Positions 14,869 to 17,801 of a DNA stretch of 34,359 bases are shown here, one piece after another. Both the position numbers and the translations under genes were made by a program. The stretch's first letter is position 1; each line of letters starts with the position of its first letter. Below the pieces are notes generated by a model. It had not been told where the DNA came from. It searched no databases and saw only the letters and a list, made by a program, of their open reading frames with translations. The DNA is from Lobulomyces angularis. Its lineage: Eukaryota > Chytridiomycota > Chytridiomycetes > Lobulomycetales > Lobulomycetaceae. The stretch covers positions 2,491 to 36,849 of the forward strand of contig JADHYX010000204.1 of the NCBI GenBank assembly GCA_027604685.1, written 5' to 3'.

Positions 14869-17801
14869 ATGCCGAAAAAGTCAGCTAAAATTAACAAAAA
14901 TAAAGCTAATGTTTCTCCTCCAGAAAGCAAACCTACCAAGGATATTGTTGACCAAGAAAGTGATGATTCAATTGCTGATGAAGATGATCATATTGTAATC
15001 GATCCATCCTTTAGCTTCGAATTTTCAGGTGGGGCTTTACAAGCCAAAATTAACTCTGCATGGAACTTTAGTCAAGTGAAATCCTCATTTGAAACGAATA
15101 ATGTACATATATACTTGCTAATGAACTATTTTTCATATTTTTTTGTTTTATTATTAGCAAAGCAACTCAAAATTTTCTACGTTGGATGAAAAAATTGAAA
15201 AAAAGCGAAATGAAAATAAGATACCCAATCTAGAAGATGAGGATGTTGACGTTGTAGATGGTAATGTGGAATCGGAGAGCGAAGAGACTTCAGCTGCTGA
15301 CGAAGCCAACAAAATTGAGCAAAATGAGTCTGATGGACAAGAATTGAGTTCTGATGAAGATATTTCAGATGAGGAAGAGTTAGCTGAAGCTGATAATGAT
15401 TTGGAAGATACTGTTCGAGATAAGGTATGCATTTTTCTTGGCATTTAGCAAAAGACAGTTTTTTATTTACTTTCACTTAAATATCTTGCTTAAAAAAAAA
15501 AAAACTAAAATTTATTTAAAAAAACAACAGAAAGCAGCAGAGTTTTTTGCACCAGAACAAGAAATTATTGAAGAGCAAGTTGAAACATTTACGGAGATGA
15601 GATTATCTCGTCCTATATTGAAGGGAGTTGCAGGCTTAGGTTTTGTGAAACCGACACCAATTCAAGCAAATACCATTCCTTTAGGTATATCAGCAAATAA
15701 AGAAAAAAAATTTTTATTTATTTTGTTTAGCAATGAAAGGTACTGATATTTGTGGTGCAGCAGTTACAGGTTCCGGAAAAACAGCTGCTTTTATTATACC
15801 TATTCTTGAGCGTTTGCTTTTTAGACCAAAAGATGTTGCTACTACTCGAGTATTGGTTTTGGTTCCCACACGTGAGTTGGGGGCACAATGTCATTCTGTT
15901 GCATCTAATCTAGGGAAATTTACAGATATTCAATTTTCACTATGTGTTGGTGAGAATTAGCCTTTTTTTATAATGTTGGTATTTATCCTATATTTTTATT
16001 TAAGGTGGTTTATCTACTAAAGTGCAAGAATTGGAGCTTCGTAAAAGGCCCGATGTTGTTATTGCAACTCCTGGGCGATTAATTGATCACATTCATAATT
16101 CCCCTTCTTTTAATTTGGATAGTATAGAGATCTTAATTATTGATGAAGCTGATAGAATTTTAGATGATGGGTTCGCTGCTGAATTAAATGAAATTATAAG
16201 AAACTGCCCAAAGGGTAGACAAACAATGTTATTTTCCGCAACAATGACTGATAATGTCGATGATTTAATAAAGCTATCGCTTAATCGCCCAGTTAGACTA
16301 TTTGTTAATTCTTCTACTGCTCTTACCTCCAGATTAACTCAGGAATTTATTCGAATTAGATCCTCAAAAGAACAACATAAATCTGCTATCTTAGCGTCGC
16401 TATGTTCCAGAACATACAAAACTGAATGTATTGTTTTTTTCAAGTCAAAGGCGGATGCACATATGATGAAGTTAGTTTTTGGATTACTTGGAATCAAAGC
16501 AGCAGAACTTCATGGAAATTTGAATCAGCTAGAAAGATTGGAGGCTTTAGAATCATTTAGGGATAGAAAAGTCGACTTTTTATTGTAACAAAAATTAAAT
16601 CTAATTTTTAATCATCCTTTTTTTTTTTATAGGGCCACAGATTTAGCTAGTAGAGGATTAGATATTGCTGGTATTAGAACTGTAATTAATTATGATATGC
16701 CTACCAACTACAGTTTGTATGTACATAGAGGTTTGGAAATTTTTATTTTATTTTATTTTTTTTGTTTTTTGTGCGTAAAATAAAATATGATGAATCAAAA
16801 ATACATCACAGACCTGAACCGAACGTAGTGTTGGATAAAATTTTTAATTTTCTGATTTTTAAACAAAAACATTTTTCAAAAAAAAAAAAGTCTTTATGTA
16901 GATTAATTTTTTTTTTTTTTTTATCTTTGCATCTTTAGTTGGCAGAACTGCTCGTGCTGGTCAAGCTGGTAGAGCTGTTTCTCTTGTTACTGAGCAAGAT
17001 CGAAAAGTTTTGAAACTTGCTGTAAAAAATGCTGGAGCTCAGTCTCACATAAAAAATAGAGTTATACCCTCTTCTGTTATTTTAAAATTTCAAAAAAAAA
17101 TTCAAGATTTAAAGGAAAAAGTCAAAGAAATATCTAAAGAGGAATATGAGGAAAAAGTATTTAAGAAGACGGAGATGGAAATTAACAAAGGACTGAATAG
17201 TATTAAACATCAAGATGAAATTTTATCACGGCCAAAGAAGGAATGGTTTCAGTCACAAGATGAAAAGTTGCAGCAAAAAGAGCTTGGAGTCAGAAACCAT
17301 GGCGCCAGTAAAAAAGAAAAAAACAATGAGGAAGATGTAAGATTTTTTTATTTTTTTTTTGGCAAGAGTGTTTCAATTAGATATTTAAATATGATGAATC
17401 ATAAAACTCATCACAGACCTGAACCGAATGTTATGTTGGATAATAGTTTTTATATTTGATTTTAAATTTTTTTCTTTTTAGAATTGCACCGCAAAACATT
17501 AAGAATAAAAATTAATTTTTGTTTTTTTTATCTTTTTTAGTCAAAGAACAAGTTGAAGAGATCTCCATTGGATGGTCTTTCTAGAAAAAAGAAGAGGCAA
17601 CGTTCTCAATTTTTGGAAGAAGAAAAAGAGCAATTAAAAAGTCAAAAATTTTCCGTTAGAAGTGCAAAAACGTCAACAAAACCGAAAAAAGTTAAACAAT
17701 TTGCAGATAAAATTAATTCAAAGCCTTCCAATGGTCAGTCAACACGAAAGAAGAAGAGTGGTAGTAGATTTGACGCGGAAGTCAAAGGTAAAAGACGATA
17801 G
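14869..17801 (+). CDS. DRS1: DEAD-box RNA helicase DRS1/DDX27, ribosome biogenesis
   Basis: Eight exons (14869-15102, 15158-15424, 15531-15684, 15731-15949, 16005-16584, 16633-16730, 16939-17336, 17541-17801) encode 736 residues; yeast Drs1 has 752. It is a nucleolar ATPase for 60S subunit assembly. An acidic N-terminal region precedes the core. Motifs in order: Q motif FVKPTPIQ, I GSGKT, Ia PTREL, Ib TPGR, II DEAD, III SAT, IV CIVFFKSK, V ATDLASRGLD and VI HRVGRTARAG. A Lys-rich tail ends KGKRR. The start at 14869 (MPKKSAKINKNK) is preferred; an in-frame ATG at 14827 would add 14 residues including a Phe run. Introns 6 (16731-16938) and 7 (17337-17540) are about 200 nt, much longer than the others, and each holds a C/D snoRNA. 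Confidence 0.95.
16782..16862 (+). ncRNA. Intronic C/D-box snoRNA, U25/snR56-like, copy 1
   Basis: It lies inside DRS1 intron 6. C box ATGATGA (16787-16793); guide CATCACAGACCTG (16804-16816); D' box CCGA (16819-16822); D box CTGA (16852-16855). AT pairs flank the C and D boxes as a weak terminal stem. The 13-nt guide is exactly complementary to CAGGTCTGTGATG of eukaryotic 18S rRNA. Counting five bases up from D' lands on the C opposite the first G of AGGT, the position methylated by human U25 (18S G1490) and yeast snR56, as recalled. The ends are estimates; the D' box is degenerate (CCGA for CTGA). Confidence 0.8.
17384..17468 (+). ncRNA. Intronic C/D-box snoRNA, U25/snR56-like, copy 2
   Basis: It lies inside DRS1 intron 7 and is clearly related to copy 1. 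C box ATGATGA (17391-17397); the same guide CATCACAGACCTG (17409-17421); D' CCGA (17424-17427). The shared downstream block contains TGTTGGATAA. The D box is degenerate, TTGA at 17456-17459. The terminal stem is better than in copy 1: TTTAAAT before the C box can pair with the TTTTAAATTT after the D box. The surrounding intron sequence is not conserved between copies, so only the snoRNA has been retained. The weak D box leaves open whether this copy is functional. Confidence 0.7.

What the first reader, a model, noticed from the sequence alone, without database searches (positions are those of the whole stretch)
16731..17540. Twin U25/snR56-like C/D snoRNAs in adjacent introns of the DRS1 helicase gene
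Two introns about four times longer than their neighbours share one conserved island: ATGATGA, then the guide CATCACAGACCTG, a CCGA D' box, and TGTTGGATAA. The guide is exactly complementary to the invariant 18S segment CAGGTCTGTGATG, and D' spacing points at the G methylated by U25/snR56. The sequences outside the island have diverged. A ribosome-assembly helicase hosting duplicated 18S methylation guides would link guide and helicase expression; I know of no description of this host arrangement.
Basis: partly seen in the sequence, partly recalled or inferred. Interest (0 to 1): 0.8.

Follow-up and report, generated by a model that had tools for sequence, protein, structure and literature searches.

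The report
Twin methylation-guide RNAs in helicase introns
A chytrid fungus carries two copies of an ancient small RNA that marks one spot on ribosomal RNA, in two neighbouring introns of a ribosome-building helicase gene; the RNA and this style of hosting are known, only the particular host and the pairing look new.

Summary
Introns 6 and 7 (208, 204 nt) of a DRS1/DDX27 gene each hold a 69-nt box C/D element with the snR56/U25 guide CATCACAGACCTG. Of 24 snR56 matches reported in the 20.76-Mb assembly, these are the best two (26.7 and 22.2 bits; next 16.4). Neither reaches Rfam's gathering score, and the SNORD25 model reports nothing. C box plus guide core occurs only at these two places. The snoRNA part aligns at 84% (z 12.2), the flanks at chance apart from a shared pyrimidine-rich 3' end. 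Layouts nearly match: 56/69/83 and 54/69/81 nt. Copy B has TTGA, not CTGA, as D box, so may be weaker. The best protein match is the chytrid Clydaea vesicula (98%). Best reading: an intronic U25/snR56 guide duplicated in cis. Paralogues in adjacent introns, ribosome-biogenesis hosts, and two guides for this site are published. Five searches listed no paper that I saw naming DRS1 as host. Expression and methylation are untested; no relative's DNA was read; the organism's own 18S was not found.

The parts
14869..17801 (+). DRS1/DDX27 DEAD-box helicase gene, 8 coding exons, 727 aa when spliced; host gene
   Evidence: splicing by GT-AG gives an open frame; DEAD and Helicase_C domains in exon piece 16022-16588; best match P0001, Clydaea vesicula 'nucleolar DEAD-box protein required for synthesis of 60S ribosomal subunit', 98% identity. 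N-terminus and intron 1 boundary uncertain (P0001 differs there)
16731..16938 (+). intron 6, 208 nt, phase 1, host of copy A
   Evidence: the annotated protein P0001 has the same junction
16787..16855 (+). snR56/U25-like box C/D snoRNA, copy A (C box to D box, 69 nt)
   Evidence: Rfam snR56 39.0 bits, E 0.0012 in 1 kb, gathering score 54; best of 24 matches in the assembly
16787..16793 (+). C box ATGATGA, copy A
16804..16816 (+). guide CATCACAGACCTG, copy A; C16814 is the fifth base before D'
   Evidence: 13 contiguous pairs with a eukaryotic SSU rRNA segment
16819..16822 (+). D' box CCGA, copy A
   Evidence: aligned with CUGA of the snR56 model
16829..16835 (+). C' box TGTTGGA, copy A (degenerate, assigned by eye)
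   Evidence: position
16852..16855 (+). D box CTGA, copy A
   Evidence: A/T-only terminal stem of 5 contiguous pairs
17337..17540 (+). intron 7, 204 nt, phase 0, host of copy B
   Evidence: the annotated protein P0001 has the same junction
17391..17459 (+). snR56/U25-like box C/D snoRNA, copy B (C box to D box, 69 nt)
   Evidence: Rfam snR56 32.2 bits, E 0.022 in 1 kb, gathering score 54; second of 24 matches in the assembly
17391..17397 (+). C box ATGATGA, copy B
17409..17421 (+). guide CATCACAGACCTG, copy B; C17419 is the fifth base before D'
17424..17427 (+). D' box CCGA, copy B
17434..17440 (+). C' box TGTTGGA, copy B (degenerate, assigned by eye)
   Evidence: position
17456..17459 (+). 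D box of copy B, TTGA instead of CTGA
   Evidence: A/T-only terminal stem of 7 contiguous pairs

Best explanation
Introns 6 and 7 of a chytrid DRS1 gene carry two cis-duplicated box C/D snoRNAs of the U25/snR56 kind, each with one guide, at D'. The pre-mRNA is spliced, the C/D core proteins hold the box C/D region in the excised intron, exonucleases trim the rest, and the guide pairs with 18S rRNA so that fibrillarin methylates the G paired to the fifth base before D' (the first G of CAGGTCTGTGATG). Copy A is a working guide; copy B descends from the same element and probably still works (about three chances in four, judged apart from the confidence given here). Shown here: sequence, spacing, uniqueness in the assembly, pattern of conservation between the copies, host identity. 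Inferred: expression, processing, methylation, direction and mode of the duplication.
For: The best two of 24 reported snR56 matches in the assembly are these two, 26.7 and 22.2 bits against 16.4 for the third (62 of 6890 candidates scored). C box + guide core occurs only here, reversed control 0. The snoRNA part aligns at 84% (z 12.2) between flanks at chance (5' z 1.0; 3' up to the supposed branch point z -0.3). Layout is nearly equal: 5' splice site to C box 56/54, C to D 69/69, D to 3' splice site 83/81 nt; Neurospora intronic snoRNAs lie mainly 41-60 nt from the 5' splice site (PMC2780460, passage). A scan of both strands of the window for a C box followed 45 to 110 bases on by a D box (CTGA or TTGA), with a terminal stem of at least 4, gives 3 candidates, two of them these. 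The guide forms 13 contiguous pairs with the segment as found in a eukaryotic SSU rRNA. D' spacing equals snR56's in the model alignment.
Against: Both copies are below Rfam's gathering score (39.0 and 32.2 against 54; nothing at gathering threshold in the window). The SNORD25 model reports nothing in the assembly at E<=1 (66 of 1875 candidates scored), and at E<=10 the snR56 model rings weakly in 8 of 14 control genomes, 0 over the cut-off. Copy B's D box is TTGA. Terminal stems are A/T only and weakly significant (shuffle fractions 0.043 and 0.036). The organism's own 18S was not found with two short patterns. No relative's DNA was read, and there is no RNA evidence.
Confidence: 0.9

Rival explanations
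1. Copy A is the working guide and copy B a decaying duplicate that no longer makes a stable snoRNA because its D box is TTGA (a rival for copy B alone).
For: The D box is TTGA; copy B scores lower with snR56; its minimum-energy fold does not close a terminal helix; one guide suffices in principle.
Against: Guide, C, D' and C' boxes are intact in copy B although the surrounding intron has diverged to chance, and its terminal stem is longer than A's (7 against 5). In the C/D kink-turn (recalled) the first D-box base pairs with a G of box C, so C to T leaves a G-U wobble.
Confidence: 0.25
2. The islands have a cis role in DRS1 splicing, for example as a sensor of box C/D snoRNP level like the published cis-acting snoRNA in NOP56 pre-mRNA, and methylation is secondary.
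For: Published precedents for intronic snoRNAs acting in cis (PMC11028025, passages and a reference title); a D box off consensus could lower snoRNP assembly on copy B.
Against: The exact guide with its D' box is kept in both copies, which a mere cis sensor would not need; alternative splicing could not be looked at here.
Confidence: 0.06
3. The functional D' box is the CTGA that overlaps the guide (16814-16817; 17419-17422), shifting the target by five bases.
For: It is a perfect CTGA in both copies.
Against: It would cut the guide to 10 nt; CCGA is kept in both copies and lies where CUGA lies in the snR56 model, with 13 pairs available.
Confidence: 0.04
4. Chance resemblance in AT-rich introns.
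For: Low-complexity surroundings; Rfam scores below gathering.
Against: The 13-mer is expected about 0.08 times in the assembly yet occurs in two adjacent introns at nearly the same layout, and C box with guide core only there.
Confidence: 0.01

Closest known systems
snR56 (Rfam RF01188) / SNORD25-U25 (RF00054) / plant snoR19, box C/D guides for 18S Gm (one Rfam clan, CL00049, as tabulated in PMC3511168, passage)
   Same: Guide core, guide to D' spacing, box order; the best two matches in the assembly to snR56 are these copies
   Different: D' is CCGA, C' is TGTTGGA, D of copy B is TTGA; scores below gathering; no match reported with the SNORD25 model; duplicated and housed in DRS1
Neurospora crassa Nc CD19 and Nc CD41, two intronic guides for 18S-Gm1423 (PMC2780460, table passage)
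   Same: Two intron-encoded guides for the same 18S site in one fungus
   Different: CD41 also guides 26S-Cm1489 from its D side; I did not see their hosts and do not know whether they share one
Intronic snoRNAs snR59/snR39 in RPL7 and snR191 in NOG2 of fungi (PMC8476143, passages)
   Same: Ribosome-related host gene with a guide in an intron and a proposed coordination
   Different: Other guides (snR191 is box H/ACA) and other host genes
Cis-duplicated vertebrate snoRNAs in adjacent introns (PMC2653536, passages)
   Same: Paralogues in neighbouring introns with guide and structure kept and much of the rest diverged
   Different: Vertebrates; different guides and hosts

Membership tests
Box C/D snoRNA | C box RUGAUGA near the 5' end and D box CUGA near the 3' end | tested here: inconclusive
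   Copy A meets both; copy B has the C box but TTGA as D
Box C/D snoRNA | short terminal stem bringing C and D together | tested here: inconclusive
   5 and 7 contiguous pairs, A/T only, shuffle fractions 0.043 and 0.036; the minimum-energy fold of A closes a helix next to the boxes (using the last D-box base), that of B does not
Box C/D snoRNA | internal C' and D' boxes | tested here: met
   CCGA where snR56 has CUGA, then TGTTGGATAA against the model's GAUAA stretch, in both copies, though degenerate
U25/snR56 | guide to the conserved 18S segment, with the target paired to the fifth base before D' | tested here: met
   13 contiguous pairs to the segment in a eukaryotic SSU rRNA; same register as snR56. 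The pairing was not tested on the organism's own 18S, which was not found
U25/snR56 | Rfam gathering score | tested here: not met
   39.0 and 32.2 bits against 54 for RF01188; RF00054 reports nothing in the assembly at E<=1. A curated threshold, not a biological feature; that chytrids are thin in the model is a guess
U25/snR56 | stable small RNA and methylated G in 18S | not testable with these tools
   no RNA data
Host gene DRS1/DDX27 | DEAD-box helicase most similar to annotated DRS1 | tested here: met
   98% to the Clydaea vesicula protein; many of the 120 listed matches bear the same DRS1-type name, P0059 is shown as DDX27 and P0091 as DRS1; domains

The most novel reading that the evidence does not exclude
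DRS1 in chytrids is a dedicated two-shot host: copy A is the constant methylation guide, while copy B with its weakened D box senses free box C/D proteins, so that snoRNP supply tunes DRS1 splicing and ties 18S marking to 60S helicase output.
Probability: 0.04. Interest if true: 0.75.

Novelty: new member of a known kind. Interest (0 to 1): 0.3.

Why it matters
It adds a DRS1-hosted, cis-duplicated guide for a very old 18S methylation site in an early-branching fungal lineage. It fits the published view that intronic guides settle in ribosome-biogenesis genes, and it offers a natural pair (CTGA against TTGA D box in the same transcript) for testing how much D-box change a C/D snoRNP tolerates.

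Tried and rejected
Third 13-mer match on C28: rejected; it lies in a gene-like region inside a 92-aa open stretch read on the other strand (an open stretch is no proof of coding), no C box 2-30 nt upstream, no Rfam match at gathering. Rfam hits n00280, mycoplasma_FSE and snR76 in the region: below their cut-offs, taken as chance. SNORD25, SNORD14 and SNORD24 models on the assembly: 0, 4 and 3 matches at E<=1, none over the cut-off; I did not look into the seven, so nothing can be said about how this genome hosts other snoRNAs. Guide core followed within 4 nt by CTGA anywhere in the assembly: none. Of the five IMG/VR contigs holding the 17-nt 18S pattern, I scanned three with Rfam; one, L013, held eukaryotic SSU rRNA and served for the pairing test; L012 and L014 were not scanned. 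Conservation in relatives was not tested: the tool states that this genome has no relatives held, the metagenome scans are capped at 0, the genome collection is described as bacterial and archaeal, and I did not scan the viral collection for the helicase. The fungal snoRNAome paper (Canzler 2018) is not held. A search for SNORD25/snR56 methylation papers listed 0.

Full report
The window lies in a 20.76-Mb, 533-contig assembly. The best protein match to the spliced helicase is Clydaea vesicula (Chytridiomycota, Lobulomycetales) at 98% identity; the other listed matches are at most 71% over part of the protein, so the window is from that species or something very near. Over the aligned part my protein differs from the Clydaea one by a single residue and by nine residues at intron 1, where the annotation uses a later 5' splice site; the first residues also differ. 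The exon piece tested has DEAD and Helicase_C domains. Many listed matches are named as the nucleolar DEAD-box protein for 60S synthesis; single ones are shown as DRS1 and DDX27. The annotated protein crosses the two long introns at the same junctions that I chose; that is annotation, not RNA evidence.

Observation. Introns 6 (16731-16938, 208 nt, phase 1) and 7 (17337-17540, 204 nt, phase 0) are longer than the other five (82, 106, 46, 55, 48 nt). Each holds C box ATGATGA, guide CATCACAGACCTG, D' CCGA, C' TGTTGGA and a D box that ends 69 nt from the start of the C box: CTGA in copy A, TTGA in copy B. The guide 13-mer occurs at 3 places in the assembly; the third lies in a gene-like region. 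About 0.08 are expected by base composition. C box plus guide core gives 2 places, both here, with 0 for the reversed control.

Families. At Rfam's gathering thresholds the window has no match. With E-value thresholds on 1001 bases, snR56 matches A at 39.0 bits (E 0.0012) and B at 32.2 bits (E 0.022) against a gathering score of 54; the Dictyostelium DdR1 model (31.1 bits on A, 17.2 on B, gathering 70) and the snoTBR7 model (18.5 bits on A, gathering 45) also align, sharing most of the guide. In the whole assembly snR56 gives 24 matches up to E 10; A and B lead with 26.7 and 22.2 bits and the third has 16.4; 62 of 6890 candidates were scored. At that loose threshold the model also rings in 8 of 14 control genomes, 0 over the cut-off. 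The SNORD25 model gives 0 matches at E<=1 in the assembly, 66 of 1875 candidates scored. By score alone the family call would be weak; the uniqueness, layout and doubling carry it.

Constraint and layout. A and B align at 84% over the snoRNA (z 12.2 against 500 single-base shuffles). The 5' flank is at z 1.0, or 0.2 without the splice-site hexamer. The 3' flank up to the supposed branch point (TTAAT, chosen by eye) is at z -0.3; the stretch from there to the 3' splice site scores z 4.5, as pyrimidine-rich intron ends of one genome may. Distances are 56/69/83 in A and 54/69/81 in B. Neurospora's 5' distances are reported as mainly 41-60 nt (PMC2780460, passage). Terminal stems of 5 and 7 contiguous pairs lie beside the boxes; random positions of the window reach 5 in 4.3% and 7 in 1.0% of cases, and shuffled flanks reach the observed length in 4.3% (A) and 3.6% (B), so they help only a little. 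A scan of both strands of the window for C and D boxes (CTGA or TTGA) with a stem of 4 or more finds 3 candidates: A, B and one on the minus strand at 5929.

Target. The organism's 18S was not found by two short patterns, and the 18S family search did not complete. In an IMG/VR contig that Rfam recognises as eukaryotic SSU rRNA (L013, 912 nt matched) the segment ACAGGTCTGTGATGCCC is present, and both guides pair with it over 13 contiguous bases. The fifth base before D' is C16814 or C17419, pairing with the first G of CAGGTCTGTGATG; the register equals that of snR56, for which the table of PMC3511168 gives Gm1427 (snR56), Gm1490 (U25) and Gm1431 (AtsnoR19) (passage).

How it most likely works. 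Splicing releases two introns, each carrying a box C/D core that survives trimming and guides 2'-O-methylation of the same 18S G. The different intron phases and unrelated flanks say that this is not a recent duplication of an exon-intron block; copying of the snoRNA into a neighbouring intron, or an old duplication with only the snoRNA under selection, fits. Which copy is older is unknown. Copy B keeps guide and boxes but TTGA would make a wobble with box C (recalled structure), so I give it about three chances in four of being functional; the confidence of 0.9 covers copy A and the shared descent.

What is known. Two intronic guides for this site are tabulated in Neurospora (CD19, CD41; PMC2780460, table passage). 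Guides in fungal ribosome-related genes and the idea of coordinated expression are published (PMC8476143, passages). Fungal snoRNA clusters in introns of non-coding hosts are published too (PMC3596301, passages). Cis-duplication of snoRNAs into adjacent introns with the guide kept and much of the rest diverged is published (PMC2653536, passages). Intronic snoRNAs acting on their own host are reviewed (PMC11028025, passages). Searches for DRS1/DDX27 or DEAD-box hosts, chytrid intronic snoRNAs and snR56 hosts listed no paper that I could see describing this host; most listed papers were judged by title and abstract start only, one search showed 20 of 1,251, and the main fungal catalogue (Canzler 2018) was not held. 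The finding is therefore a new member of a known kind, well supported by sequence; the host is new to me and the linkage idea is not.

Changes made on checking. The third 13-mer place is now described. The single-residue difference to P0001 is now from an alignment. The best explanation is worded so that its confidence, left at 0.9, covers copy A and shared descent, with copy B's activity judged apart.

Noticed in passing
window 17456-17459: Copy B's D box is TTGA while its C, guide, D' and C' boxes equal copy A's; a natural test of D-box tolerance.
   Followed up: partly
window 18478-25894: A myosin heavy chain gene seems to follow DRS1 on the same strand; I tested only 21386-25894 (Myosin_tail_1 and IQ), the start at 18478 is by eye. 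A run of 10 N lies at 21328-21337.
   Followed up: no
window 14869-15158: The Clydaea protein P0001 starts differently and has nine residues more at intron 1 than my model; elsewhere it differs by one residue (E in the window, G in P0001), so the record may be another strain or assembly version.
   Followed up: partly
G000 (window's assembly): No match to two conserved 18S patterns (16 nt with up to 2, 20 nt with up to 3 mismatches), so the rDNA may be missing from the assembly or withheld.
   Followed up: partly
window 8629-9315 and 28020-28397: A TPR-repeat protein and an EF-Tu-type GTPase fragment; they look like ordinary neighbours.
   Followed up: no
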